Of a stretch of DNA of 64,000 nucleotides, positions 11,491 to 64,000 are shown piece after piece. A program made the translations under genes and the position numbers. The notes below the pieces were generated by a model. That model saw nothing but the letters and a program-made list of their open reading frames with translations. It had not been told where the DNA came from and made no database searches. Source of the DNA: Flavobacterium sp. N2270 (lineage in GTDB: Bacteria; Bacteroidota; Bacteroidia; Flavobacteriales; Flavobacteriaceae); the NCBI RefSeq assembly GCF_025947225.1, contig NZ_CP110005.1, forward strand, positions 2,232,001 to 2,296,000, written 5' to 3'. Position 1 is the stretch's first letter. Each line of letters begins with the position of its first letter.

Positions 11491-11571
11491 ACATAGCCCT
11501 GATAGAGCTGATATCCTTTTTTGTAGTGCTAACGAAAAAAAAGATAAAAGCGAAAGCAGGAAATAGCTTCA
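11491..11571 (+). ncRNA. Candidate structured RNA (flavobacterial motif)
   Basis: Directly before the gene at 11579 lies a segment with the order ATAGCCCTGATAGAG, TGATATCCTTTTTT, a loop, AAAAAAAAGATA, then GAAAGCAGGAAATAGCTTC. Two nested pairings are visible: TATCC-T-run with A-run-GATA, and GCCCTG with CAGG...AGC. I recall very similar strings recurring in Flavobacterium genomes, and it may correspond to the Flavo-1 RNA family; this is memory, not a search. Its function is unknown. It could instead be the leader of the downstream gene. Confidence 0.45.
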
Positions 11572-52298: not shown

Positions 52299-53837
52299 AT
52301 GCGTAAAGCACTCAACTTATTCGATTTTTCTCAAAAAGTAGATTATAAAATAGAAATCCTAGCCGGGCTTACTGTTGCAATGACTATGATTCCTGAATCC
52401 TTATCATTTGCAATTTTAGCAGGCTTCCCTCCTCTTGTGGGGTTATATGGCGCTTTTATAATGGGATTAATTACTGCTATTTTAGGCGGTAGACCAGGAT
52501 TGGTTTCTGGAGGTGCTGGTGCAACAGTTATTGTTTTAATTGCTTTAATGAAATCGCACGGTTTAGATTATGTTTTTGCAGCTGTTGCTATGGCAGGAGT
52601 TATTCAAATAATAGTTGGTTTATTAAAACTGGGTAAATTTATTCGTTTAGTTCCACAACCGGTAATGTTTGGATTTGTAAATGGTTTAGCCATTATTATT
52701 TTCATGTCGCAATTAGAACAATTTAAAACAGTTGTAAACGGACAAAAAGAATGGTTAACTGGAGCACCTATGCTTATAATGGCAGGATTAGTAGCTTTAA
52801 CCATTGCAATAATTATTCTTTTGCCAAAAATTACCAAAGCAGTTCCGGCTTCTTTAGTGGCTATTTTAGTGGTTTTTGCAATAGTTTTACTTTTTGATAT
52901 AGAAACAAAACAAGTGGTAGATATTGCTTCAGTTAGTGGAAGTTTACCTCCATTTCATATTCCAAATATTCCTTTTACTTTAGAAACGTTGCAAATTATT
53001 CTTCCTTATGGTTTAATAATGGCTGCCGTTGGTTTAACTGAAGGTTTATTGACACTTAATTTAGTAGATGAAATTACAGGTACTAAAGGAAACAGTAACC
53101 GAGAATGTTTAGCCCAAGGAACAGCAAATATTGCCAACGGATTCTTTTTTGGAATGGGCGGTTGTCCTATGATTGCACAAACCTTGGTAAACTTATCATC
53201 GGGCTCAAGAGCGAGATTATCTGGAATTGTAGCTGCATTAACTATTTTAACCATCATTTTAGTAGGTGCGCCAGTAATTGAATTATTGCCTATGGCAGCG
53301 CTTACCGGCGTAATGATTATGGTTGCTATTGGAACTTTTGAATGGGCCAGTTTTAAAGCTTTTACCAAAATGCCAAAACACGATATTTTTGTAATGTTAG
53401 TAGTTACTTTAATTACGGTTTTACTGCACAATTTAGCTTTAGCAGTTTTAATTGGAGTAATTATTTCAGCATTAGTTTTTGCTTGGGAAAGTGCTAAACG
53501 TATTCGTGCAAGAAAATATGTGGATGAAAATGGTGTAAAGCATTATGAATTATTTGGACCCTTATTTTTTGGTTCAACCACTGCTTTTGCTGAAAAATTT
53601 GACGTTGAAAATGATCCAAACGAAATTATAATTGATTTTGCCGAAAGTAAAATTACCGATATGAGCGCTATTGATGCAGTTAATAAAATAACTGAACGTT
53701 ATGCTAAACTGAACAAAAAAGTACATTTAAAACACTTAAGTAGCGACTGTATTGATTTACTTAAAAATGCAGAAGCCATAATTGATGTGAACATTATGGA
53801 AGACCCAACATATAAAGTTGCGGTTGATAAAATGTAA
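52299..53837 (+). CDS. SulP-family anion transporter
   Basis: A 512-aa inner-membrane protein of the SLC26/SulP family with about 12-14 helices. It has VAMTMIPESLSFAILAGFPP, MGLITAILGGRPGLVSGGAGA and GFVNGLAIIIFMSQLEQF, and a C-terminal cytoplasmic STAS domain (about residues 420-512, IIDFAESKITDMSAIDAV). It carries anions such as sulfate or bicarbonate; the substrate is not predictable. It is the last core gene before the cassette array. Confidence 0.93.
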   Translation: MRKALNLFDFSQKVDYKIEILAGLTVAMTMIPESLSFAILAGFPPLVGLYGAFIMGLITAILGGRPGLVSGGAGATVIVLIALMKSHGLDYVFAAVAMAGVIQIIVGLLKLGKFIRLVPQPVMFGFVNGLAIIIFMSQLEQFKTVVNGQKEWLTGAPMLIMAGLVALTIAIIILLPKITKAVPASLVAILVVFAIVLLFDIETKQVVDIASVSGSLPPFHIPNIPFTLETLQIILPYGLIMAAVGLTEGLLTLNLVDEITGTKGNSNRECLAQGTANIANGFFFGMGGCPMIAQTLVNLSSGSRARLSGIVAALTILTIILVGAPVIELLPMAALTGVMIMVAIGTFEWASFKAFTKMPKHDIFVMLVVTLITVLLHNLALAVLIGVIISALVFAWESAKRIRARKYVDENGVKHYELFGPLFFGSTTAFAEKFDVENDPNEIIIDFAESKITDMSAIDAVNKITERYAKLNKKVHLKHLSSDCIDLLKNAEAIIDVNIMEDPTYKVAVDKM

Positions 53838-53915: not shown

Positions 53916-53955
53916 TATGTACGGAGTATGTACGGAGTATGTATGGAGTATGTAC
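53916..53955. repeat. 11-bp direct repeats at the array edge
   Basis: TATGTACGGAG occurs at 53916 and 53927, TATGTATGGAG at 53938, and a partial TATGTAC at 53949, with an exact 11-bp period. They lie in the 337-bp gap between SulP and the restriction gene, about 150 bp before the first cassette boundary. They could bind a recombinase or another protein. Confidence 0.8.
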
Positions 53956-54031
53956 TTTTTAAATAAGTTTTTTTTTTGTTCAATTATGAATTAAATATAA
54001 AAAATTTTATTTAGATTTGGGTTAGAAAAAA

Positions 54032-54092
54032 GTATGATGCTTATCATACATATACAGCCAAAATTGGGCATATATGTATGACTACATCATAC
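54032..54092. repeat. 61-bp imperfect palindrome next to the first cassette boundary
   Basis: GTATGATG ... TCATACATATA on the left pairs with TATATGTATGA ... CATCATAC on the right around AAAATT, leaving only short mismatched bulges. A third TCATACATATA unit (54088-54098 region) leads straight into the first GTT box at 54103. This is the best candidate for an attI-like primary insertion site or a recombinase-binding region. The rest of the 53838-54174 gap is AT-rich and shows no gene. Confidence 0.65.
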
Positions 54093-54146
54093 ATATAAAC
54101 AAGTTACATGAAATTATTGGCGAACGATAATTCAAAAGAAAAACTG

Positions 54147-54154
54147 TATTTTTG
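54147..54154 (+). promoter_or_regulatory. -7 promoter element for the restriction endonuclease gene
   Basis: TATTTTTG matches TAnnTTTG and lies 20 bp before the start codon, inside cassette 1. Confidence 0.55.
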
Positions 54155-54174
54155 AAACTGTAAAAGTTAATAAA

Positions 54175-55578
54175 ATGAATAATGAAACTTTTGGAATTAC
54201 ATTCCAGTATGCAATCTGCCAACAATACAAACTTGATAATGACATTTCTTTAGAAAGGGTTGACAAAAAATTACTGATAACTTTCCTTAATTCTAGGATA
54301 ATTCCTAAAATATTTAGAGGAAGAAAACCAATTGAATATTTATCTAACTCTAAAGAGTATACTTCACCATTTATAAAAAGATGTCCTCACAACTTTTTAC
54401 TCACAAATAACGAAACATTTTCTGTTAGAACATTTCAAGGAAGTGGGAAAATGTTTGCACCAAAAGTGGTTGGACAGGCTGGAGACGAAACTTTCAATCA
54501 TTTCTTTGGACATTTATCAACAGAAGAAATTTCAAGAAATAATTTTAAGACATTTTGTTTGAATCATATTGACGAAATGTTACCAATTATTGTTGATTAT
54601 GCATTAGTAAGTGACTTAAATTGTTGGTTTTATATTAAAGACAATAATTTTCATTATGAAATATTAAAAAGAGATGATTTACCTGAATTGACTTTTGATT
54701 CAAAAAATTTCACTTTCACAAAACCAACCGTAAATGAATGGGTAGAATCAAATACAATTAAATACAAAGGAAAAACGGTTTTAGAATTACAATTACACAC
54801 GAATCGAGCAGGATATAAAATTAGACTTCACAGAGAAAACTTTCCAGTTTTGTTAAAAGTTGAAAAAGAAATAAATAATTCTTTGCTTGGTGATACTGCC
54901 GAATTAGCGATTTGTAACGTCTTTAATCTTGATTCAGGTGTAAACAATGAAAGATTGATGAATAACTCAGATAAAATAATTCTAAAAGCGTTCGAAAATC
55001 ATTATAAAGTCAACAAAACTAATTTATTCCCTTTGAAACCTATAAAATATTCAGGAACAGAAAAAAGGGAACGTGGAGGTCATAGCAAAAGCGGAGTTGA
55101 TTTTTTTCTTGAAAAAAATGCTACATTATCTGTAAAAACTAACAAATCAAAGTCATTTAAAGTTTGTCCACCTGAAGTTGGACAACCTTCCCCAAAAACA
55201 TTTGACCTATATTTTTCTAAAAAGGGTTGGTATGACGGAAATATGAATGAAGAAAAGTTTAGAATTTTAGTAAAAGACAAAGAAAAACTATCATTGCTTT
55301 TAAGTGAATATGTGAAATTTTTAAATGAATGTGATTATCTTTTATGGTCATTATATTTAAACGAAAATAATATAAACTCTAAACTTGTGGAAAAAGCCGA
55401 TTTGAAAAACATCACTTTCAATCCGGATTTAATTGAATATTCAAACGACTTTACAGAAAAAAGTAGTGTTACAATTAAATATGGTAAAGATCGCTTTTCA
55501 TTAGGCGAATTTCAAGTCCATTCTGCTAGAAATTCATTAAAATTCAGATTCAATTTTAATAATTTATTGTCAGTTTAA
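54175..55578 (+). CDS. Probable type II restriction endonuclease with duplicated halves
   Basis: I name this 467-aa protein from its position directly before a C5 DNA methyltransferase gene; I do not recognise the family. It is made of two homologous halves (about residues 1-228 and 229-467): YAICQQYKLD aligns with LAICNVFNLD, NETFSVRTF with NATLSVKTN, VVGQ with EVGQ, and the ends with each other. A PD-(D/E)XK-like pair, Asp309 and Lys321, is seen in the C half, while the N half has Asn73 and Arg85 at the same places. The C half is thus the probable catalytic part and the N half a degenerate, perhaps allosteric, copy. Confidence 0.7.
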   Translation: MNNETFGITFQYAICQQYKLDNDISLERVDKKLLITFLNSRIIPKIFRGRKPIEYLSNSKEYTSPFIKRCPHNFLLTNNETFSVRTFQGSGKMFAPKVVGQAGDETFNHFFGHLSTEEISRNNFKTFCLNHIDEMLPIIVDYALVSDLNCWFYIKDNNFHYEILKRDDLPELTFDSKNFTFTKPTVNEWVESNTIKYKGKTVLELQLHTNRAGYKIRLHRENFPVLLKVEKEINNSLLGDTAELAICNVFNLDSGVNNERLMNNSDKIILKAFENHYKVNKTNLFPLKPIKYSGTEKRERGGHSKSGVDFFLEKNATLSVKTNKSKSFKVCPPEVGQPSPKTFDLYFSKKGWYDGNMNEEKFRILVKDKEKLSLLLSEYVKFLNECDYLLWSLYLNENNINSKLVEKADLKNITFNPDLIEYSNDFTEKSSVTIKYGKDRFSLGEFQVHSARNSLKFRFNFNNLLSV

Positions 55579-55589
55579 AAAACTATATT

Positions 55590-55597
55590 TATATTTG
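55590..55597 (+). promoter_or_regulatory. -7 promoter element for the methyltransferase gene
   Basis: TATATTTG, identical to the element in the cassette sites, lies 27 bp before the methyltransferase start codon. The methyltransferase can therefore be expressed independently of the endonuclease, as restriction-modification systems require. Confidence 0.65.
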
Positions 55598-55634
55598 GAC
55601 ATAATTGGACAAATTTAGACAAATATGGACACAA
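55595..55634. promoter_or_regulatory. Four 10-bp direct repeats, candidate operator of the methyltransferase gene
   Basis: TTGGACATAA, TTGGACAAAT, TTAGACAAAT and ATGGACACAA follow one another with an exact 10-bp period, from the -7 box across the start codon at 55625. Helical phasing suggests a bound protein that blocks transcription. The N-terminal helix-turn-helix of the methyltransferase is the obvious candidate ligand. Confidence 0.6.
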
Positions 55635-56866
55635 ATACTAAATTATTAAGAATTGAAGATATTGCTATAAAACTAAATGTATCTCAAAAATCAGTTAGAA
55701 GATATATTCATTCAGGAAAATTGCAATCAAATAAAATCGGAGGTGTACACAGAGTTGAGGAAAGTGCTTTAGAATATTTTGTTCAAAAATCGTTGTTTGC
55801 ACCTGAAATAGAAGATGTAGAACTTACCGCTCCTAAATCAACAAAAACGGACACAATTAATTGGATTGACATTTCTGACGAATGGGATAATGTTCAAAAT
55901 TTAGATTTAACTTCAGCCGACTTATTCTGTGGCGCAGGCGGGATGGCTAAAGGATTTGAAATGGCAGGCTTCAACCAAGTTTGTGGCTTAGATTGGTTTA
56001 AAGAAGCTGGTATGACATATAGAGAAAACTTTTCTCATCCATTAATTGAAGGAGATATAACAAAAAGAGAGATAAAAGATAAGTTCATTAACACTGTAAA
56101 AGAAAAACTAAAGGGAAAGAACCTGACGGTTCTTTCTGGCGGTTTTCCTTGTCAAGGTTTTAGTATGTCAGGCAACAGAGTTGTCGAAGACCCAAGAAAT
56201 TCTCTGTATAAAGATATGTTGGAGATAATAAAAGAACTTCAACCTGAATTTATTGTTGCCGAAAATGTAAAAGGTTTACGCTCAATGTTAAAAGGAAAAG
56301 TCGAAGACAAAATAAGAGTAGATATTGAAAATCTTGGATATAAAGTAAATGTAACTGTTCTTAATTCAGCAGATTATTATGTTCCTCAAAAAAGAGAGAG
56401 AGTTATTTTTATTGCAAATAGAATAGGTAAAAAAAACTATCATCCTGCTCCGATTTTAGAATCTGATTCATATATAACCACAAAAGAGGCCATAGGAGAT
56501 TTAGTTAAACTAAAAGATAACCCAAAATTTAATCATGTCAGAACCAAACATTCAGATGAAATGAAAGATAGATTGGCTAAAGTTCCTGAAGGAAAAAGTT
56601 TATATGATAAATACTCTGATTCATGGAAAAAATGCCCCTGGAACGAAGCTAGTTGTACTATAAAAGAAAATCATGGTGGTGTGAATATTCATCCTATTGA
56701 GCCAAGAGTTATTACAGTTAGAGAAATGGCAAGATTACAATCATTTCCTGATGATTTTATATTTAAGGGAACAAAATCAAAACAAATGGTGCAAATTGGA
56801 AATGCAGTTCCTCCTTTGTTAGCAAAAGCTATTGCATTATCTATCAAACAAACTTTAAAAAAATAA
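55625..56866 (+). CDS. DNA cytosine-5 methyltransferase with N-terminal helix-turn-helix domain
   Basis: The 413-aa enzyme protects DNA against the partner nuclease. Residues 8-55 are an excisionase/MerR-like winged helix (IEDIAIKLNVSQKSVRRYIH). The catalytic part has motif I DLFCGAGG (99-106), motif IV GGFPCQGFS with nucleophile Cys176, motif VI ENV (213-215), motif VIII QKRER (255-259), and motif X QIGNAVPP near the C-terminus. All are intact. The target-recognition region lies between VIII and IX. The helix-turn-helix may autoregulate the gene. Confidence 0.95.
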   Translation: MDTNTKLLRIEDIAIKLNVSQKSVRRYIHSGKLQSNKIGGVHRVEESALEYFVQKSLFAPEIEDVELTAPKSTKTDTINWIDISDEWDNVQNLDLTSADLFCGAGGMAKGFEMAGFNQVCGLDWFKEAGMTYRENFSHPLIEGDITKREIKDKFINTVKEKLKGKNLTVLSGGFPCQGFSMSGNRVVEDPRNSLYKDMLEIIKELQPEFIVAENVKGLRSMLKGKVEDKIRVDIENLGYKVNVTVLNSADYYVPQKRERVIFIANRIGKKNYHPAPILESDSYITTKEAIGDLVKLKDNPKFNHVRTKHSDEMKDRLAKVPEGKSLYDKYSDSWKKCPWNEASCTIKENHGGVNIHPIEPRVITVREMARLQSFPDDFIFKGTKSKQMVQIGNAVPPLLAKAIALSIKQTLKK

Positions 56867-56870
56867 CTTC

Positions 56871-57002
56871 ATGTAACAGCAGTTTGGCAAAATGGCGAGT
56901 TTCGGTTTTAATCAAACATTCGGTTTTCTAATAAGCAATAGTTCTAAAATGAAAGTAAGTGTAACTATATCCGCCACTTCGCCAAGCTGCAAAACGTTGT
57001 AA
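56871..57002 (+). repeat. attC-like cassette site A
   Basis: Begins ATGTAAC and ends GTTGTAA. The stem GCAGTTTGGC pairs with GCCAAGCTGC, with a one-base spacer on the AAC side and AAAAC on the GTT side. It ends cassette 1: TTCATGTAAC here is the reverse complement of GTTACATGAA at 54103. It is the only site of the eleven without TATATTTG. Confidence 0.8.
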
Positions 57003-57457
57003 CTAATAGCTCGAAAAATCGCAGATAAAGGAAATTAACTGAACTTTTATTGAAATTAAATTGAAAATATTGAGCTGAATTTTTGAAAAGAACGAAATCG
57101 TAAATCAAGCATGTTTTCGTAAAATAGAAAATTCTCAAACTGAACTTTGTCGAAAAGTTTATCTGAAAAACTTTGTGCTGAAATTTTGAAAAGAACGAAA
57201 TTATAAATCAAGCATCTTTTCGTAAAACAGAAAAATATGAAACCGAACTTTGTCGAAAAGTTTGCTTGAAAGTCTTTGTTCTGAAATCTTGAAAATTATG
57301 TAAACGTTAATCAAGCATATTTTTTTTTAAGTTGAAAATCTCAATTTCTGAACTTTGTGGATAAATAAATTGCTGAAAAACTTTGTATTGAGAGTTTGAA
57401 TTCAACTTACATAAATTCGTTCCGAATTGACGCAATCTGAATTAAAACAGCTACTAG
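57003..57457. other. Non-coding cassette 2 body with ~103-bp tandem repeats
   Basis: No reading frame of useful length is present on either strand. Three degenerate tandem units fill most of it: 57074-57176 (103 bp), 57177-57279 (103 bp) and 57280-57386 (107 bp). All share CTGAAATTTTGAAAA, AATCAAGCAT and GAACTTTGT blocks. The site in front of it (A) also lacks the promoter box, so this cassette may be silent or act as DNA. Confidence 0.75.
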
Positions 57458-57593
57458 TTACAACAGTGGTTTGCAAAAATGGCTAGGCTCGCTCCTATTT
57501 TGGAAAATCCTGTCGGATTTTCCAATTTTTGTTTATATTTGTGAAGGCTTGGTGTTGGTTTACGCCACTTTTGCAAGCCACAAAACGTTATGG
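57458..57593 (+). repeat. attC-like cassette site B
   Basis: Begins TTACAAC and ends GTTATGG. The stem AGTGGTTTGCAA pairs with TTGCAAGCCAC; here GTGG/CCAC replaces GCAG/CTGC of other sites, so pairing is kept by covariation. An inner hairpin GGAAAATCC/GGATTTTCC (57502-57523) precedes TATATTTG at 57534-57541. Confidence 0.82.
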
Positions 57594-57628
57594 CTAATAC
57601 TAAAGCACCGAAATTCTAAGACGAAATT

Positions 57629-58195
57629 ATGAAAATATTAAATCTGCTTTTTTTAGCTTTTCTACTACTCAATTATAGTAGTGAAAATAAAATAGATTTT
57701 GGTGCATTCTCAATGAAAACACCAAAAAAATGGAATTACATAAAAGAACGTGGAATTGATTCATTTATAGGTAAAATAGGAATCGACAAAAGAGACACAT
57801 TATACTTTGACTATGGATTATATTCGAGTGACCTTGAAGAAAGCTTTAATGGTGGCTATTATTACATTATAAATAACGACAGTATTTTTACTCCAGATTG
57901 GGAACTTAGCAATTCAGACACAATTGATGAACCTATTTATAAATTCTTTGCACGAGGTGGAAAAAACAAGCTTTTAGAGTTTAAAAAAGACACTTTTTAT
58001 TATGAGAAAATTAATGGTTTGAAAGCAAAAATTGTTGTCCCTAAAAAACCCGAAATGGGAACCACTGGTGTGTATTTTGAAAATACAAGAATTGATGGAA
58101 AAGGAGTGAGTTTTCAAATTAACGGTTACAATTTGAAGAAAAAAAATCAGATAGAATTCCTCAAAGCTATTAAAACGATAAAATTTAAAGATTAA
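57629..58195 (+). CDS. Exported protein of unknown function, cassette 3
   Basis: The 188-aa protein has a hydrophobic N-terminus (MKILNLLFLAFLLLNYSS) and no cysteine, so it is probably a secreted or anchored protein. The mature part starts with FSMKTPKKWNYIKERGIDSF and has a late LKAKIVVPKKP and FLKAIKTIKF. The opening resembles PsbP/YjhX-like lipoproteins that begin with a MxxPKxW strand, but I cannot assign a family with confidence. The gene starts 36 bp after site B, whose promoter box should drive it. Confidence 0.72.
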   Translation: MKILNLLFLAFLLLNYSSENKIDFGAFSMKTPKKWNYIKERGIDSFIGKIGIDKRDTLYFDYGLYSSDLEESFNGGYYYIINNDSIFTPDWELSNSDTIDEPIYKFFARGGKNKLLEFKKDTFYYEKINGLKAKIVVPKKPEMGTTGVYFENTRIDGKGVSFQINGYNLKKKNQIEFLKAIKTIKFKD

Positions 58196-58205
58196 AAAGT
58201 ACTAG

Positions 58206-58340
58206 CCATAACAGCAGTTACAAGAAATTACTAGGCATGGGATTTATCAGAATTGGTAATTGTTGAATAAAAGTTTTGGTTATATTTGTAATTGTCGGTG
58301 AATGAAGTACGCAACTTCTTGTAGCTGCCAAACGTTATAA
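58206..58340 (+). repeat. attC-like cassette site C
   Basis: Begins CCATAAC and ends GTTATAA. The stem GCAGTTACAAGAA pairs with TTCTTGTAGCTGC, with one-base and five-base spacers as in site A. TATATTTG is at 58281-58288. Its interior (GGCATGGGATTTATCAGAAT) is shared with sites I and J. The preceding TAGCCATAAC complements TTATGGCTA at the start of cassette 3. Confidence 0.85.
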
Positions 58341-58689
58341 CGCATAAACTCTGTGCGTGTAAAAAAGCTGTTTAATAAATTCCGAAAACAGAAATTTTCA
58401 CAGAAAATATCCGAACTGATTTTTGTTGATTTGAACTTAAACTGACTTCAGAAAATATTCAGAATTTGAATTTCTTTGTGGAGTTTCACTCGCCGAATTT
58501 TCAGCTTACGTTCGCGAATTTTTCAGTTTTCTACTTATCCAGAGTTTGGAAAGTTTTGGATTTGAAAATTTGAACTACTTCTACTCTATTTTTTTTCAAT
58601 AAATTGAAAAACCTTAAAGCTTTCGTCCGAACTGAACGTAGCAATTCTTTGTGTGTAAACTGAGTTTTAACTTTGTGTTAGTTTACGCG
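58341..58689. other. Non-coding cassette 4 body, duplicate of cassette 6
   Basis: About 350 bp with no start codon-led frame of any length; neither strand codes for a plausible protein. It is nearly identical to 59497-59847. Ends ATAACGC-TAAACT and AGTTTACGCGTTAT are complementary over 14 bp. It may express an RNA from the promoter in site C or serve as spacer DNA. Confidence 0.75.
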
Positions 58690-58828
58690 TTATAACCGCA
58701 GTTAAATTCCATGGCTTTGGTTTGGGCTTTTCAGCGGAAAATAATGCGGTAAATTAAATGTTTTGTATATATTTGTGTTAGTCGTAGCTTAATTATCGCC
58801 ACTGAAATTTAGCTGCAAAACGTTAGCA
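58690..58828 (+). repeat. attC-like cassette site D
   Basis: Begins TTATAAC and ends GTTAGCA. The stem GCAGTTAAATTCCATGGC pairs with GCCACTGAAATTTAGCTGC. TATATTTG is at 58768-58775. Almost identical to site F apart from some arm bases. Confidence 0.85.
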
Positions 58829-58865
58829 GACATATTCTCAAAAATCGAAATAAATCAAAATTTTT

Positions 58866-59351
58866 ATGGAAGAAAATTTAGTGCAAAATTGGATTGAAAC
58901 AGATAAAAATCTCAGCAATTTAATTACTGAAATAGAAACAGAGTTTAATTCCTACGCAGAACAAGCCGAAGTTGCCTTCGAAAGATTATCAAAATTATAT
59001 AATATTCCAAGAATGCCAGAAGACGTCGCAGAGGACGAATTTGAAGATGACGACGAATCTGATGGTGTTTCGGATAAAAGATCTCTTTTTGAAGAGCACG
59101 CTTTAATTAAATATCTTACGGACGAAAATGAAGACCCACGAGGAGTTGTATTATCTGCTGCTTTTCACTTATTAAATGATTATCGAGTTGATTTATTTCA
59201 CGTTGCCAAAAAAGAGTTTGGTGAAAATATACCTGAAAATTGCAAAATTGGAATAACAGGAGAAGGTTTTAATGGAAATGTTGTTTTTCCACAAAAAGAA
59301 ACTAAAAGTTGGTTTGAGTTAGGTTGTAAAATAATGAAACAGATAAATTAA
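58866..59351 (+). CDS. Acidic cytoplasmic protein of unknown function, cassette 5
   Basis: A 161-aa protein without signal peptide. It is mostly helical, with an acidic linker (EDEFEDDDESDG, residues about 57-70) between an N-terminal coiled stretch and a C-terminal domain with VLSAAFHLLNDYRVDLFHVAKKEFG. Unlike most other cassette products it appears cytoplasmic. The overall look recalls small DUF families in Bacteroidota but I cannot name one. It starts 37 bp after site D. Confidence 0.68.
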   Translation: MEENLVQNWIETDKNLSNLITEIETEFNSYAEQAEVAFERLSKLYNIPRMPEDVAEDEFEDDDESDGVSDKRSLFEEHALIKYLTDENEDPRGVVLSAAFHLLNDYRVDLFHVAKKEFGENIPENCKIGITGEGFNGNVVFPQKETKSWFELGCKIMKQIN

Positions 59352-59358
59352 ATACGTC

Positions 59359-59496
59359 TGCTAACAACGGTTTTGTTCAATGGCTTGGGCTTGGTTTTTC
59401 CTTCGGAAAAACCTCTATGATTCGTAATTTTGTTTTATATTTGCTTTGGTCAGTGACTAATCAAAGCCACTGAAACAAAGCCGCAAAACGTTATAA
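59359..59496 (+). repeat. attC-like cassette site E
   Basis: Begins TGCTAAC and ends GTTATAA. The stem ACGGTTTTG pairs with CAAAGCCGC. An inner hairpin GGTTTTTCC/GGAAAAACC (59393-59413) precedes TATATTTG at 59436-59443. The preceding GTCTGCTAAC complements GTTAGCAGAC at the start of cassette 5. Confidence 0.82.
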
Positions 59497-59847
59497 CGCA
59501 TAAACTCTGTGCGTGTAAAAAAGCTGTTTAATAAAACCCGAAAAGAGAAATTTTAACCGAAAATGTCCGAACTGAATTTTGTTGATTTGAAATTAATCTG
59601 GCTTCAGAAAAACTTCAGAATTTGAATTTCTTTGTGGAGTTTCACTCGCCGAATTTTCAGCTTACGTTTGCGAACTTTTCAGCTTTCTACTTATCCAGAG
59701 TTTGCAAAGTTTTGGATTTGAAAAAATTGAACTACTTCTACTCTATTTTTTTTTCAATAAATTGAAAAACCTTAAAGCTTTCGTCCGAACTGAACGTAGC
59801 AATTCTTTGTGTGTAAACTGGGTTTTAACTTTGTGTTAGTTTACGCG
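59497..59847. other. Non-coding cassette 6 body, duplicate of cassette 4
   Basis: Nearly identical to 58341-58689; the full cassettes (58335-58822 and 59491-59978) are both 488 bp. A 20-codon frame seen here near 59564 has no start codon in the other copy, so it is not supported. The flanking cassettes and upstream sites differ, so the two copies were inserted as units and not made by one segmental duplication. Confidence 0.78.
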
Positions 59848-59984
59848 TTATAACAGCAGTTAAATTCCATGGCTTTGGTTTGGGCTTTTCAGCGGAAAAT
59901 AATGCGGTTAATTAAATGTTTTGTCTATATTTGTGTTAGTCGTAGCAAAGTTCCGCCACGGAATTTAGCTGCGGAACGTTAGCA
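59848..59984 (+). repeat. attC-like cassette site F
   Basis: Begins TTATAAC and ends GTTAGCA. The stem GCAGTTAAATTCCATGGC pairs with GCCACGGAATTTAGCTGC. TATATTTG is at 59926-59933. It belongs to the same family as D and H. Confidence 0.85.
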
Positions 59985-60004
59985 ACAATTTTAAGAAATA
60001 CTAA

Positions 60005-60568
60005 ATGAAATCTATTAAATTACTTACCATTTTGATATGCATCTCTACTTCTATTTCGTGTGGAACTTTTAACAAAACATCTAAAACAGATAGTAAAACT
60101 GGATACTTTCCAGCTAAAAAAAACAAAGCTGTAACTGTCATTAAAGAAGAAAAAATTAGTAAAGACATTTTAAAAAAATTAATAATTGTTCCAAACGATG
60201 AGTACACACTTGAGATGGTTAAAAATTTGAATTTTTTTGACAAAATAATGACGTTTGAAGAATTTCAAAAAGATATTATTTCTAAAAATTTAGAAGATAA
60301 AATTCCAAGTGTTTCTGATAGAATTGGTTTAAAAAACGCTTATAATCATTATGGTTCTTTTGTAATACTTCACTTTACAAAAGAAAGAAAAGAAACTAAC
60401 AACAATACTTCTTTATACACTGGAATATCTATTTATGACCCAAGCAAAGCTGATTTTATTTATCAAAATGAAATTTATGTAAATTTAATGTGGGACGGTT
60501 GGACAGACCAGGGAACTATGTATCCTTTATATAATTCACTAATTGATTATTTGAACAAGCAAGAATAA
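60005..60568 (+). CDS. Putative lipoprotein of unknown function, cassette 7
   Basis: The 187-aa protein starts with a lipoprotein signal (MKSIKLLTILICISTSISC, Cys19), so it is likely membrane-tethered. The mature part begins with a polar K/T/S-rich linker. A domain with SFVILHFTKERKE, DPSKADFIYQNEIYV and WDGWTDQGTMYPL follows, which looks like an alternating beta fold. No known family is recognised. It starts 20 bp after site F. Confidence 0.7.
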   Translation: MKSIKLLTILICISTSISCGTFNKTSKTDSKTGYFPAKKNKAVTVIKEEKISKDILKKLIIVPNDEYTLEMVKNLNFFDKIMTFEEFQKDIISKNLEDKIPSVSDRIGLKNAYNHYGSFVILHFTKERKETNNNTSLYTGISIYDPSKADFIYQNEIYVNLMWDGWTDQGTMYPLYNSLIDYLNKQE

Positions 60569-60575
60569 AAACTGT

Positions 60576-60713
60576 AGCTAACAGCGGTTTGCTTCAATGG
60601 CTACTTCGGGATTTTCCTACGGAAAATCCGCTGCTGAATGGAATGTTTTGTTATATTTGTAATGGCTTGGTGCTGGTTCAACGCCACTGAGAGCAAGCCG
60701 CAAAACGTTGTAC
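60576..60713 (+). repeat. attC-like cassette site G
   Basis: Begins AGCTAAC and ends GTTGTAC. The stem GCGGTTTGCTTC pairs with GAGCAAGCCGC. An inner hairpin GGATTTTCC/GGAAAATCC (60609-60629) precedes TATATTTG at 60652-60659. Confidence 0.84.
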
Positions 60714-60731
60714 GCAAGCTTCGAAAAAAAT

Positions 60732-61211
60732 ATGAAATTAAAAAGGAATTCTGATAATTGGTTTGACATAATATTGGGTGGCTTTACAAGCACTTTATTA
60801 TTTATCCCAGTATGTATACTGATATCAACAGAATTTAATTTTGAAATTAATTTTTTACACTTTATTTTACCTGTTTTATTTACTATATATATTCAATGGA
60901 AAGATGAATATTTTAGTGAAATAAATACCAAACTAACAGAAAAAAATAATTTTGAAATTGTAGCAAAAACTTTAAACAACTTAAATTGGGAGTATTTTAA
61001 AAAATATGACGAAATTAAACTTAGAAATAATAAATTCTATCTAAACTCTCTCGATGTAACAATAATTACTCGAAGTAAAAAAATATTTTATAATTTTAAT
61101 TATAGAAACCTAATTAGAAGTGGAAGACCAGCGTTCTTTTTTGGAATAAGCACAATCCTAAAAATGATTTTTATATATAATTTAAAAAAAGAATTGAAGA
61201 ACATGAAATAA
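60732..61211 (+). CDS. Small membrane protein of unknown function, cassette 8
   Basis: I use ATG 60732 as start; the frame extends upstream but only through a TTG that lies within the recombination box. The 159-aa product has two transmembrane helices (about residues 15-35 and 42-58) and a basic, polar cytoplasmic part with FEIVAKTLNNLNWEYFKKYDE. A final hydrophobic segment lies near residues 135-150. No family is recognised. Confidence 0.68.
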   Translation: MKLKRNSDNWFDIILGGFTSTLLFIPVCILISTEFNFEINFLHFILPVLFTIYIQWKDEYFSEINTKLTEKNNFEIVAKTLNNLNWEYFKKYDEIKLRNNKFYLNSLDVTIITRSKKIFYNFNYRNLIRSGRPAFFFGISTILKMIFIYNLKKELKNMK

Positions 61212-61219
61212 AAGCCTGC

Positions 61220-61359
61220 GTACAACAGCAGTTAAATTTCATGGCTTTGGCTTGGGTTTTATCAGCCGAAAATAATGCGCTTATTGAAAGGTTTTTTCTA
61301 TATTTGTGTCAGCCGTAGCTTAATTATCGCCACAGAAATTTAGCTGCAAAACGTTGGCG
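61220..61359 (+). repeat. attC-like cassette site H
   Basis: Begins GTACAAC and ends GTTGGCG. The stem GCAGTTAAATTTCATGGC pairs with GCCACAGAAATTTAGCTGC. TATATTTG is at 61299-61306. The preceding GCGTACAAC complements GTTGTACGC at the start of cassette 8. Confidence 0.85.
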
Positions 61360-61403
61360 GTAATATTAGCCGAGCGGAAACGAGAAAATATAATTTAAAA
61401 AAT

Positions 61404-62171
61404 ATGCTTACCGAAATTGAATTTTCTACAGAGTTTGCGAAACGACTTACTGAAAAAGTTGAAGGCTTGAAAATATTTTCTATTAAAGGTCTTGAAATCC
61501 AAACAGAATTTGATAACTCAAACGAATACAAACATTTTCTGAATAATTGTTATTCTGAATATTTAAGAGAACCTGAAAGTATTGAAGAAGTTTTTGAAAA
61601 ATATTTAAATTCATCTGACAGTTTGTATAAACCAAACGAAACTATTAATATATCTGATATTTTACCCGTAATAAAAGATGAACGCTTTATTCAAAGCATA
61701 TTTGAAATAAATCCAAATTTTGAAAAAAATCACACTTTCGAAAAATATAATAGCGAACTTTATATTTTCTACGTCGAAGATACAGAAACAAACATAAATT
61801 ATTTAACTCAAGAAGATTTTGAAAAACTAAACGTTGAAAAAAGTGAACTCAGAAGAATTGCAATAGAAAATCTGTCAAACTCTATAGAAATCGAAAGACA
61901 CGGAGAAAATGGTTACTTTATGTTATTGGCAGACGGAAATTATGAATCAAGTATGATTTTGCTTGACATTTGGAATGAAGAAAACTTTAAAGTTAAAGGT
62001 GAAATTGTAATAGGAATTCCATCGCGCGATTTGTTGATTATTACAGGTAAAAATGACAAAGAAAATATTAAGAAACTTAAACAGACAATAAGCGAAATAA
62101 ATGAAAATGGAGATCATTTAGTTTCTGAAAAGTTATTTGAATACAGAAACGGAAAATTTGAATCTATATAA
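61404..62171 (+). CDS. DUF1444-like protein, cassette 9
   Basis: The 255-aa cytoplasmic protein shows the DUF1444 (YtpQ-type) pattern: ISDILPVIKD near residue 85, ELYIFYVEDTETNI, SELRRIAIENLSNS, GNYESSMILLDIWNEENF and IVIGIPSRDLLIITGK. The family has no established biochemical role; it is best known from Firmicutes genomes, and the occurrence inside a cassette of a Bacteroidota array suggests acquisition. It begins 44 bp after site H. Confidence 0.72.
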   Translation: MLTEIEFSTEFAKRLTEKVEGLKIFSIKGLEIQTEFDNSNEYKHFLNNCYSEYLREPESIEEVFEKYLNSSDSLYKPNETINISDILPVIKDERFIQSIFEINPNFEKNHTFEKYNSELYIFYVEDTETNINYLTQEDFEKLNVEKSELRRIAIENLSNSIEIERHGENGYFMLLADGNYESSMILLDIWNEENFKVKGEIVIGIPSRDLLIITGKNDKENIKKLKQTISEINENGDHLVSEKLFEYRNGKFESI

Positions 62172-62179
62172 AATACTAC

Positions 62180-62342
62180 CGCCAACACACGTTTTGCGAT
62201 ATTGCTAGGCATGGGATTTATCAGAATACTTTAGTAAAAATTTTTTTTGCTTTCAATCAACATTGGTTTTCAAAATATTCGGTATATTTGTTAACGTCTT
62301 TGCTAAAATTACGCAACATCGCAAAGCGCGGGAACGTTATAC
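62180..62342 (+). repeat. attC-like cassette site I (divergent, 163 bp)
   Basis: Begins CGCCAAC and ends GTTATAC. The stem TTTTGCGAT pairs with ATCGCAAAGCG; the outer arm differs from all other sites. The interior GCTAGGCATGGGATTTATCAGAA is shared with C and J over its length, so the site appears mosaic. TATATTTG is at 62283-62290. Confidence 0.78.
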
Positions 62343-62377
62343 CTAATTTTAACCGAAGCGATAAAAACAGACAATTA

Positions 62378-63190
62378 ATGAATAAATTTTCACTTTCATT
62401 TTTATTAATTTTTATTATTAATATCTCGAATGGACAAGAATGCCAAATTCCAATTTTATTGGACAAAGAAATTTTTGAAGCTTCTAACAATGAAAAATTT
62501 GCAGAAGAAGATTTTTATAGAATTAACAGTTTGCTTTTTGAATATGAAGCAAAGGACAGTTTGAAAAATTTGAATAAATGCTCTTCATATTTTAAAAACA
62601 TTGAAAAACTATTTAATTCTGAAACTACTGATAAGCGTGTTTTAGCTTATAGATTGATTGGAGTTGCAAATGACAGTACTTTTAACAACGAACTAATCAA
62701 CAGAATTAACTCAAATGAAAGTTCACTTTTAAAAACTTGGAGCACAACTGCATTAATGGCAAATAATTGCGGAAAAGCATCTGATGATTTATTTGTTTTA
62801 TTCTCATCATTCCCAAAAGGATTGCCTGTTGATATTTTGATAAATATGTATATTAAATATGATACAAATGCTGTCAAAAAAACTTGTTGGAAATTTATAG
62901 ATTCAGAAAATAAAAACCAACAAATTTTGGCTATACAATGTTTAGCAAACTTTGAAAAAGACGAAAAATTGCAAACTAAACTAATTGAGTTTTTAAACTC
63001 TTGGGATAATAATTCTAAAGGTTGGGTAATTTCGTCAATTTCTATGCAAAAAATGGAAAATCTAAGACCTATTTTAGAAAAGTATAGTGAAGTAGAAGAT
63101 CTAAAAGACGTTATCATAAGAGCATTAGAAAATAGTCCAACGAAAACAGACAATAAGTTTGCGAAACAACTCGAAAAGAAGAAAAACTAG
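62378..63190 (+). CDS. Exported HEAT-like repeat protein, cassette 10
   Basis: The start is placed at ATG 62378, which begins a signal peptide (MNKFSLSFLLIFIINISNGQ); the longer frame starts inside site I. The 270-aa product is helical, with repeating units such as DKRVLAYRLIGVANDS, NQQILAIQCLANFEKDEKLQ and DLKDVIIRALENSPT, typical of HEAT/ARM repeats. Such scaffolds bind other proteins. Partner and role are unknown. Confidence 0.7.
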   Translation: MNKFSLSFLLIFIINISNGQECQIPILLDKEIFEASNNEKFAEEDFYRINSLLFEYEAKDSLKNLNKCSSYFKNIEKLFNSETTDKRVLAYRLIGVANDSTFNNELINRINSNESSLLKTWSTTALMANNCGKASDDLFVLFSSFPKGLPVDILINMYIKYDTNAVKKTCWKFIDSENKNQQILAIQCLANFEKDEKLQTKLIEFLNSWDNNSKGWVISSISMQKMENLRPILEKYSEVEDLKDVIIRALENSPTKTDNKFAKQLEKKKN

Positions 63191-63325
63191 GCATAACAGC
63201 AGTTACAAGAAATTGCTAGGCTTGGAATTTATCAGAATTGGTAATTATTGAATCAGAGTTTTGTTTATATTTGTAATTGACAGTGAATGAAGTACGCAAC
63301 TTCTTGTAGCTGCGAAACGTTGTAT
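63191..63325 (+). repeat. attC-like cassette site J
   Basis: Begins GCATAAC and ends GTTGTAT. The stem GCAGTTACAAGAA pairs with TTCTTGTAGCTGC. TATATTTG is at 63266-63273. It is almost identical to site C although the genes on either side differ. Confidence 0.86.
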
Positions 63326-63356
63326 GCAATATTTTAGAATCAAAATCCTAACAAAA

Positions 63357-63749
63357 ATGAAATTACTTAAATCAATTTTAACTTTATCAACATTATTCAT
63401 TACGATTATTTCATATTCACAAACTGAAAAAGTTCAAGATTGTAAAATATTGAAACATTCAAAACTAAAATATGTAGAAAATGATGACAAAACGGCTTTC
63501 GTGGTAATCAAGAACAATAAACATATTGAATATTTGAGAAATGAAAAATATTACATAAAATCAGATTTAGTTTGGATTAATGAATGTGAATATAATGCAA
63601 CAATGACAGAAATAACATTGCCAAACTTTCCATTTAAAGCTGGAGAAGTTATGAATGTAAAATTTGAAAAAATTGAGAATGGAATTGTTACTGGTATTGG
63701 AACGGTACGTGGAAATAGTTTTCCTGTGAAATTCGAGTTAATTAATTAA
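63357..63749 (+). CDS. Small exported protein, cassette 11, paralogue of the gene at 2132
   Basis: I start at ATG 63357 because it opens a signal peptide (MKLLKSILTLSTLFITIISYSQ); an in-frame ATG at 63324 lies in the recombination box. The 130-aa product has two cysteines in QDCKILK and INECEY contexts, as in the core-genome protein at 2132-2521 (EDCKNF, SDCKY), with TAFVVIKNN matching TVFLIKRKG. Function unknown. Confidence 0.75.
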   Translation: MKLLKSILTLSTLFITIISYSQTEKVQDCKILKHSKLKYVENDDKTAFVVIKNNKHIEYLRNEKYYIKSDLVWINECEYNATMTEITLPNFPFKAGEVMNVKFEKIENGIVTGIGTVRGNSFPVKFELIN

Positions 63750-63755
63750 TACTGC

Positions 63756-63893
63756 ATACAACAGCAGTTAAAAGCAATGGCTTAGGCAAGGGCATACTTC
63801 CGAATTTTCTCCGAAAATTCAAAAGTTTGCGTTATATTTGTTTTGGCTTGGTCTTGGCTCGTCGCCACTTCTTTTAGCTGCAACACGTTACCC
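63756..63893 (+). repeat. attC-like cassette site K
   Basis: Begins ATACAAC and ends GTTACCC. The stem GCAGTTAAAAGCAATGGC pairs with GCCACTTCTTTTAGCTGC. An inner hairpin GAATTTTC/GAAAATTC (63802-63820) precedes TATATTTG at 63833-63840. The preceding GCATACAAC complements GTTGTATGC of cassette 11. Confidence 0.85.
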
Positions 63894-63925
63894 AACATTT
63901 TTGAGAAACGTAAACGGAAAATAAC

Positions 63926-64000
63926 ATGAAAACAAAATTACATTTATCGGCTTTATTTTTTTTAATATCTATAACTATTTATTCTCAAAACAGTAATTTT
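63926..64000 (+). CDS. Exported protein of cassette 12, N-terminal fragment (cut by window end)
   Basis: Twenty-five codons are visible from ATG 63926 with no stop. They form a signal peptide (MKTKLHLSALFFLIS, then ITIYSQ), so this cassette again encodes an exported protein. Start is 33 bp after site K. Nothing can be said about the mature part. Confidence 0.65.
   Translation, partial: MKTKLHLSALFFLISITIYSQNSNF

What the first reader, a model, noticed from the sequence alone, without database searches (positions are those of the whole stretch)
54103..64000. Integron-like gene cassette array in a flavobacterial chromosome
Seen: eleven imperfect palindromes, all in one orientation, separate twelve modules. 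Each palindrome starts with ...AAC and ends with GTT.... In each of the eleven complete modules the bases after GTT at its start are complementary to those before AAC at its end (6 to 16 bp). Neighbouring cassettes do not share these bases. That is exactly what circular cassettes with one attC site would leave behind. Known: attC sites of integrons use RYYYAAC and GTTRRRY boxes with cleavage between G and TT. Inference: this is an integron or a cluster of attC sites without integrase in a phylum where such arrays are little described. Several boxes do not fit the RYYYAAC consensus strictly, so a distinct recombinase subclass is possible.
Basis: partly seen in the sequence, partly recalled or inferred. 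Interest (0 to 1): 0.95.

Follow-up and report, generated by a model that had tools for sequence, protein, structure and literature searches.

The report
Hidden integron class in Bacteroidota
A Flavobacterium chromosome holds a 58-kb row of small gene modules separated by 59 hairpin-like sites, and sites of the same design follow a distinct recombinase gene in many other Bacteroidota, so this is likely a widespread gene-capture system that works like an integron but is predicted to use a different enzyme class, one that current integron searches would miss.

Summary
The eleven palindromes are the first 11 of 59 in a 58.5-kb array. The same chromosome has a second array, headed by a tyrosine recombinase. 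Both arrays start with the same ~193-bp sequence (98.96% identical), ending at the first G|TT: an attI.

Cassette ends pair with each other in a fixed pattern: GTT+7 bp, a conserved A·C mismatch, 4 bp, then background. Neighbours do not pair. Cassette gain or loss at G|TT is visible directly: array 1 minus one cassette equals array 2 over 1,462 identical bases. One cassette is shared with F. luteum (97.2%) with unrelated flanks.

In 69 of 69 loci carrying both, recombinase and sites lie on one strand; 345 of 346 sites lie downstream. attI lies 92-108 bp after the recombinase stop in 42 of 45 mapped cases (own: 254 bp), and its half-sites covary with one recognition-helix residue.

It is not a standard integron. 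The enzyme lacks the IntI insertion (48 of 48 examined), fails the integron-integrase cut-off and forms a separate clade; boxes almost never fit RYYYAAC/GTTRRRY (1 of 71). Best reading: a second, phylum-wide kind of integron; single-strand hairpin recombination is inferred, not tested.

The parts
53916..54107 (+). attI region of array 1: 193-column match, 98.96% identical, to the attI between the recombinase gene and array 2
54012..54019 (+). TAGATTTG, fits the Bacteroidetes -7 box TAnnTTTG (motif recalled); possible common promoter of the array, untested
   Evidence: read from the sequence
54032..54049 (+). attI arm 1, palindrome GTATGATGCTTATCATAC, predicted recombinase-binding dyad
54076..54092 (+). 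attI arm 2, palindrome GTATGACTACATCATAC, predicted recombinase-binding dyad
54093..54105 (+). attI core ATATAAACAA|GTT; predicted crossover between G54103 and T54104
54103..56995 (+). cassette 1: Type II restriction enzyme (54175-55578) and C5 cytosine methylase (55625-56866), with its attC-like site
56875..56998 (+). attC-like site 1
56996..57586 (+). cassette 2, no ORF of 60 aa or more listed
57462..57589 (+). attC-like site 2 (best-scoring, 117.9 bits)
57587..58333 (+). cassette 3 (188-aa protein of unknown function) with site 3
58210..58336 (+). attC-like site 3
58334..58821 (+). cassette 4, no ORF of 60 aa or more listed; similar copies at 59490-59977 (93.8%) and L009:16697-17184 (96.9%)
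58694..58824 (+). attC-like site 4
58822..59489 (+). cassette 5 (161-aa protein of unknown function) with site 5
59363..59492 (+). attC-like site 5
59490..59977 (+). cassette 6, copy of cassette 4
59852..59980 (+). attC-like site 6
59978..60706 (+). cassette 7 (187 aa, unknown); 98.7% identical over its first 614 bases to a cassette in L015 that ends in a different palindrome
60580..60709 (+). attC-like site 7
60707..61352 (+). cassette 8 (159-aa protein of unknown function) with site 8
61224..61355 (+). attC-like site 8
61353..62335 (+). cassette 9 (DUF1444 protein, 255 aa) with site 9
62184..62338 (+). attC-like site 9 (long loop, 155 nt)
62336..63318 (+). cassette 10 (270 aa, HEAT-like below cut-off); relatives at L009:9262-10241 and in F. 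luteum (L163)
63195..63321 (+). attC-like site 10
63319..63886 (+). cassette 11 (130 aa, unknown); 99.6% copy at L009:10242-10809
63760..63889 (+). attC-like site 11
63887..64000 (+). start of cassette 12; array continues to genome position 2,344,604 (48 more sites)

Best explanation
This is the start of a large array of gene cassettes that likely works like a chromosomal integron, predicted to be run by a non-IntI tyrosine recombinase encoded at the head of a second array in the same chromosome. Shown: array, attI copies, cassette ends and gain/loss footprints at G|TT. Inferred: the recombinase binds double-stranded attI by sequence through its recognition helix. It would bind the cassette site by shape, as a hairpin of one folded strand, because the site keeps its pairing but little of its sequence. 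It would cut at G|TT and move cassettes as circles: circularisation brings the two cassette ends together and completes a 15-bp R stem with one A·C mismatch. Array 1, which has an attI but no recombinase gene beside it, would be served in trans.
For: Array: 87 sites in the genome (150 of 6,592 first-look candidates scored, so a lower bound; one search shows one more weak site in array 2): 59 in array 1, 17+6 in array 2, 5 elsewhere. Array 2 begins right after the 348-aa recombinase, on the same strand. attI: 98.96% identical over 193 columns at both arrays; 42 of 45 mapped attI sites lie 92-108 bp after the recombinase stop. Mobility: array 1 minus cassette Q equals array 2 over 885+577 identical bases; beyond them identity lasts 3 bases (GTT) on the right and 12 (the conserved palindrome end) on the left. 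Of 24 similar cassette pairs (85.8-100% identity), 20 have both flanks at 0.64 identity or less. F. luteum shares a cassette at 97.2% over 980 bases, with identity reaching 3 bases beyond on either side. End pairing. Stem covariation in 115 sites of named genomes: 94.7% paired against 65.8%, 514 double-change cells against 137.5 (alignment fitted to the model). Linkage to the recombinase: 69/69 codirectional, 345 of 346 sites downstream; genome co-occurrence 103 of 115 against 47 of 84, Fisher p 5.9e-8. Recombinase-attI coevolution in 44 loci: arms vs catalytic domain r=0.479, 0 of 5,000 permutations, vs N-terminal domain r=0.043; residue 277: TGA-Ser 17/18, CCA-Asn 5/5, AAG/AAA-Leu 12/12, CTA-Gln 4/5. 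Catalytic R-K-H-R-H-Y present in 46 of 47 relatives and in the own enzyme.
Against: No experiment and no strain pairs of one species; all footprints are within one genome or between species. Two cassettes kept their gene but have a different palindrome, which a single cut at G|TT does not give. In 8 of 53 named/own loci no attI was found within 300 bp, and 3 of the 45 found lie at 225-254 bp, the own one among them. 12 of 115 genomes with the recombinase show no site, and 47 of 84 without it (at 1e-60) do, although the scan scored only 17 candidates per genome. In one search two of five covariation measures are not clearly above shuffles (further pair types 41 against 42.3; pairs with double change 15 against 13.4, 28 of 500 shuffles as high). 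Independent helix/half-site changes on well-supported branches are few (1-4 pairs per test), too few for significance, though none goes the wrong way. Sites far from any recombinase exist on both strands (e.g. G113 at 1.88 Mb, G068 at 1.84 Mb). A single-strand intermediate is not shown; the stem could also matter as a cruciform or as RNA.
Confidence: 0.9

Rival explanations
1. A conventional IntI integron, or a cluster of ordinary attC sites whose IntI was lost.
For: Same overall plan: attI, cassettes with one site each, G|TT junctions. True IntI genes do occur in the phylum: 70 of 247 genomes over the cut-off.
Against: None of the 71 genomes with a TIGR02249 match at E<=1e-60 is of this family, and G000 has none; own enzyme 209 bits against cut-off 265; Arg-HxxR spacing 131 residues in 20 of 20 IntI, here 89-90 in 48 of 48; GTTRRRY 1 of 71; the site model finds 0 sites at 10 of 10 IntI loci. 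Five of those were checked for repeats; two (L213, L215) hold short repeated hairpins that look, by eye, like ordinary attC.
Confidence: 0.05
2. Dispersed palindromic repeats (REP/MITE-like, or moved by a HUH or other transposase) scattered between ordinary genes, with no cassette recombination.
For: Palindromes fall into families (64 sites, 18 clusters at 80% identity), and in two cases a palindrome seems to have been replaced on its own.
Against: Transposed repeats do not explain unique pairing ends of each module, one orientation within each of 75 loci, recombinase at the head in 69 of 69, or a gene plus its palindrome moving as one exact unit.
Confidence: 0.03
3. An array built and amplified by homologous recombination alone; the recombinase is a Xer/phage-type enzyme that only happens to sit there.
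For: Duplicate cassettes and repeated sites would support recA-type exchange.
Against: Identity beyond the footprints is 3 bases on one side, 12 on the other for P-R, 3 and 3 for F. luteum; attI position fixed relative to the gene; half-site/helix covariation.
Confidence: 0.05
4. Cassette sites act mainly as folded RNA or as promoters, and the conserved stem is kept for expression.
For: 51 of 78 own-genome sites contain TAnnTTTG on the coding strand against 1 on the other strand and 6 in shuffles.
Against: In other genomes the motif is near background: 35 of 335 against 28 on the other strand and 21 shuffled. Expression does not need the ends of one cassette to pair.
Confidence: 0.04

Closest known systems
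Chromosomal integrons (IntI, attI, attC)
   Same: Recombinase at the head, attI with repeated and inverted motifs next to it, long arrays of cassettes with one imperfect palindrome each, AAC...GTT ends, crossover at G|TT, little sequence but strong stem conservation, unpaired spacer and mismatches that differ between the strands (compare UCS and EHB in PMC2727003, passages).
   Different: Recombinase without the IntI insertion and in another clade; R stem is GTT+7 bp+A·C+4 bp unique to each cassette instead of RYYYAAC/GTTRRRY; spacer very unequal in this genome's sites (1 against 5 nt); recombinase codirectional with the array (divergent in two more distant genomes); N-terminal extra domain of about 60 residues; a second array with its own attI but no recombinase.
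XerA/Xer-type tyrosine recombinases (NCBIfam NF040815, 5hxy, 4a8e)
   Different: Linked to cassette arrays and a variable attI with two palindromic arms; extra N-terminal domain; two other Xer-like genes are separate in this genome.
CALIN (attC clusters without integrase)
   Same: The window's array has no recombinase gene beside it.
   Different: It keeps a full attI, and the recombinase is elsewhere in the chromosome; sites are not ordinary attC.

Membership tests
Integron (IntI type) | Integrase over the integron-integrase cut-off (TIGR02249, 265 bits) | tested here: not met
   209 bits, two stretches
Integron (IntI type) | IntI-specific insertion between catalytic Arg and HxxR (feature recalled) | tested here: not met
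   89-90 residues in 48 of 48 examined (own plus 47 of 109 relatives extracted), 131 in 20 of 20 IntI, 94-96 in two own Xer
   1 and 1 of 71 own cassettes; 19 and 22 of 264 others
Integron (IntI type) | Array of cassettes, each with one imperfect palindromic site, same orientation | tested here: met
Integron (IntI type) | attI beside the integrase gene | tested here: met
   mapped within 300 bp of the stop in 45 of 53 loci; 42 of those 45 at 92-108 bp
Integron (IntI type) | Cassette gain/loss at G|TT | tested here: met
   P-Q-R footprint and F. luteum cassette
Integron (IntI type) | Promoter Pc reading into the array | tested here: inconclusive
   TAGATTTG in the attI of both arrays; no transcription data
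Integron (IntI type) | Recombination of the folded bottom strand of attC | not testable with these tools
   covariation only; needs a single-strand delivery assay as in PMC2727003 (passages)
Integron (IntI type) | Recognised by IntegronFinder's attC model | not tested
   model not available here; conversely the model of these sites finds 0 sites at E<=1 around 10 of 10 IntI genes of the phylum, of which 5 were checked for repeats and 2 hold attC-like repeats
XerA-type recombinase (NF040815) | Curated cut-off 220 bits | tested here: met
   225.5 bits
XerA/XerCD chromosome-dimer resolution | Acts at a single dif site | not tested
   two other Xer-like genes exist (L001, L003; L001 fragment best matches XerD; L003 judged by length and tree only); no dif search made

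The most novel reading that the evidence does not exclude
Bacteroidota carry a second, separately evolved integron: a Xer-lineage recombinase without the IntI insertion that recognises folded single-stranded cassette hairpins, with an attI code written in one recognition helix (residue 277 and neighbours) and cassette ends that carry their own unique 15-bp R stem. It would be the main gene-cassette reservoir of the phylum.
Probability: 0.6. Interest if true: 0.96.

Novelty: new variant of a known kind. Interest (0 to 1): 0.92.

Why it matters
Reported integrons in Bacteroidota proper are few. Two papers list the phylum among those with integrons (PMC8618304, PMC9668308; passages); the IntegronFinder 2.0 paper names one complete integron there, in Salinibacter ruber, beside Chlorobi and Ignavibacteriae (PMC9024848, passages). 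Here sites of one design appear in 150 of 199 sampled Flavobacteriaceae genomes (E<=0.01) and in 79 of 247 genomes across the phylum (E<=1e-4). If the mechanism holds, a whole phylum has a gene-capture system that standard searches would not see, with restriction-modification and mostly unknown genes as cargo. It would also test whether hairpin recombination needs the IntI insertion, show how attI specificity is encoded, and provide new recombinases with swappable target sites. The unique, exactly bounded pairing of each cassette's ends bears on the open question of how cassettes arise.

Tried and rejected
My own idea that the N-terminal domain binds the attI arms was tested and rejected: arm half-sites follow the catalytic domain, not the N-terminal one. 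Its fold stayed unidentified: Pfam gives weak DUF5710 hits (9 of 24 members, best 1.6e-4) and other chance-level ones, PDB sequences nothing convincing (best E 0.21), the whole-model fold comparison covers residues 70-343 only, and a fold search with the domain alone was not accepted.

A promoter inside every cassette site looked general at first; the motif is enriched in this genome's sites only. A home-made search for ordinary attC hairpins found none in any of the real loci tried, so it is uninformative; a repeat search showed attC-like repeats at two of five IntI loci checked. Rfam has no family matching the sites (gathering thresholds). A possible explanation of the two palindrome swaps: PMC2727003 (passages read) reports that top-strand transfer moves the crossover to the R'' box; rare events of that kind would exchange a palindrome alone, but this was not tested. 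Papers read in passages only: PMC8618304, PMC9668308, PMC9024848, PMC8352920, PMC8946536, PMC2727003, PMC8400371; all others seen as search listings.

Limits of the counts. In the BLAST of cassettes sequences were cut at the predicted ends first, so the match ends alone prove nothing; the flank comparison and one search do. Of 413 sites, 18 do not start AAC and end GTT; they were kept and left out of the site-consensus counts. One site cut off by a contig end was dropped. 44 of 45 attI rows were used. The spacing count uses 47 of 109 relatives; the tree uses 31 of 109 plus the own protein and L203. The strand check (46 of 46 site rows, 20 recombinase loci) used rows that I picked by eye from the capped lists, within about 80 kb; I overlooked at least one further agreeing row (G012), and more distant sites on both strands were outside it. 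In one search the 1e-50 threshold also lets through secondary matches of 175-186 bits, so I count only matches over 280 bits.

Full report
What is there. The window is G000:C1:2,232,001-2,296,000 of a one-contig 2.79-Mb genome. The nearest named relatives of its recombinase are mostly Flavobacterium. Downstream of a SulP-type transporter gene (52299-53837; label from recall) lies a series of modules on the + strand, separated by imperfect palindromes of 124-155 nt. A covariance model from 16 site types finds 87 sites in the genome (a lower bound, since 150 of 6,592 first-look candidates were scored): 59 in this array, which runs to 2,344,604; 17 plus 6 on the other strand at 1.81-1.82 and 1.77 Mb; and 5 elsewhere. 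The window holds the first 11.

attI. The 193-column stretch before the first cassette of the window array is 98.96% identical to the stretch between recombinase and first cassette of array 2, and beyond the first GTT the two arrays differ. Using only the rule that the first cassette's start must pair with its end, attI was located within 300 bp of the recombinase stop in 45 of 53 loci (52 named relatives with sites, plus own); 42 lie at 92-108 bp and three at 225-254 bp, including the own one (254 bp; extra tandem repeats lie in between). The 75 bp before G|TT share a plan: a 17-bp arm, about 26 bp around CCaaatttGG, a second, palindromic 17-bp arm, then TATAtACaA|GTT. The two arms resemble each other within a locus (0.66) more than between loci (0.43; 0 of 2,000 permutations). 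They differ between species, and arm 2 follows the recombinase's catalytic domain (r=0.479, 0 of 5,000) but not the N-terminal (0.043) or SAM-like (0.035) domain (44 loci). The strongest single position is residue 277, in the helix 272-285: TGA-Ser 17/18, AAG/AAA-Leu 12/12, CCA-Asn 5/5, CTA-Gln 4/5; the other four loci are one-offs. Both traits change 18 times on a tree made without that region, and no independent pair goes the wrong way, but only 1-4 pairs per test lie on well-supported branches, and in some of them the residue does not differ. This ties the enzyme to this attI more firmly than nearness alone.

The cassette site. Sequence is conserved at AAC, GTT and a few inner positions; the rest of the stem covaries (96.2% paired; 94.7% paired in 115 sites of named genomes, with 514 double-change cells against 137.5, though the number of further pair types does not exceed shuffles there). 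The folded strand has AAC/GTT, a very unequal spacer, a 4-bp stem, a T·G pair, a variable stem and an A·C mismatch before a long loop. Outside AAC/GTT, pairing between the two ends of one cassette is 0.85-1.0 at positions 1-7, 0.00 at position 8 (A on one side in 100%, C on the other in 91.5%), 0.79-0.97 at positions 9-12 and 0.14-0.25 at 13-14, in 71 own cassettes; 264 others show the same profile at lower level (0.66-0.90, 0.02, 0.55-0.83, 0.11-0.14). The same bases across one site pair hardly better than random ones (run of 6 or more: 1.8% against 1.0%). Two of the three conserved odd pairs (A·C on the top strand) would be wobble pairs on the bottom strand; the third is the reverse; the strand used is not decided here.

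Cassettes are compact: the longest ORF starts a median 30 nt after G|TT and stops a median 11 nt before AAC; it lies on the + strand in 61 of 71 own cassettes, on the other strand in 2, and 8 have no ORF of 60 aa. Cassette 1 carries a Type II restriction enzyme (PADLOC profile only) and a C5 methylase. Of the nine window cassette proteins, two have a Pfam match over its cut-off (the methylase and a DUF1444 protein).

Movement. Cassette P is followed by Q then R in array 1, but directly by R in array 2. P (885 bp) and R (577 bp) are identical in both, so array 1 without Q equals array 2; beyond R identity lasts 3 bases, before P 12 bases of conserved palindrome end. In all, 24 pairs of similar cassettes were found among 335; 20 have both flanks at 0.64 identity or less.

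Spread. Sites occur in 150 of 199 sampled Flavobacteriaceae genomes (E<=0.01) and the recombinase (1e-60) in 115 of 199; 103 genomes have both (Fisher p 5.9e-8). In loci carrying both, orientation agrees in 69 of 69 and 345 of 346 sites lie downstream. In the phylum sample 79 of 247 genomes have sites at 1e-4. Of 15 such genomes outside the family, chosen by me for strong hits, 12 have a match of over 280 bits to the recombinase profile; a 13th (G305, 186 bits) is no better than secondary matches, and two have none. In seven of the 12 (G254, G375, G379, G383, G230, G211, G204) sites lie downstream on its strand on the same contig, in two (G242, G385) the order is divergent, in three the recombinase and sites are on different contigs (read). 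True IntI genes occur in 70 of 247 phylum genomes, none of the 71 with any match being of this family. The site model finds nothing around the 10 IntI genes examined, of which five were checked for repeats and two hold repeated hairpins of ordinary attC look.

What it is. It has the three parts of an integron and its footprints, so 'works like an integron' is well supported. Membership in the IntI family fails on three tested features (enzyme cut-off, insertion, box consensus). I therefore call it a new variant: a second kind of integron. Whether it arose separately from IntI or split early from a common ancestor is open, because the tree does not settle the order of IntI, this family and Xer. 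Single-strand hairpin recombination is an inference from a site that keeps shape but not sequence while attI keeps sequence specificity.

What was not settled. How palindromes were exchanged alone in two cassettes; whether the attI TAGATTTG box drives the array; what the N-terminal domain does; whether the third attI-like place (L219:2426) is active. In print: nine library searches listed no paper on such a system; most subscription papers and preprints are not held.

Noticed in passing
window 62336-63318 vs L009:9262-10241; window 59978-60706 vs L015: Same cassette gene and end up to about AAC, but a different palindrome follows: the palindrome appears to have been exchanged alone, perhaps by a crossover at the other (R'') box.
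   Followed up: partly
L219:2426 (genome 2,016,925): A third attI-like sequence with one clear cassette behind a type-I-restriction-like gene (label from recall); tblastn finds no recombinase in the 7 kb searched. A weaker attI-like place is at L222.
   Followed up: partly
L012:2633-2790, L012:4775-4934, L011:4811-4968: The same ~30-bp insert (GCTTCGCCAGTTCGCACAAAGTGCTCGAG) sits in the loop of two different palindrome families.
   Followed up: no
genome 1,776,519-1,809,206 (L016, L015): Array 2 is interrupted by about 33 kb that begins near another tyrosine recombinase gene (L004, 409-aa open frame); possibly an inserted mobile element.
   Followed up: no
window 53916-53956; L011 about 9720-9810: Tandem TATGTACGGAG-like repeats just before attI, in different copy number at the two arrays.
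   Followed up: no
window 54175-56866: A restriction-modification pair travels as one two-gene cassette.
   Followed up: partly
genome 2,592,882 (L218): A single high-scoring site (102.6 bits) behind one gene outside any array; no paired cassette start was found in the stretch searched, so it may be an off-target insertion.
   Followed up: partly
L203 (G242) and G385:C7: In two genomes outside the family the recombinase is shorter (open frames of 282 and 291 aa, without the N-terminal domain; the G242 match crosses one stop codon) and divergent from the array, as in ordinary integrons.
   Followed up: partly
window 11491-11567: Flavo-1 RNA match (Rfam RF01705, 52.8 bits).
   Followed up: no
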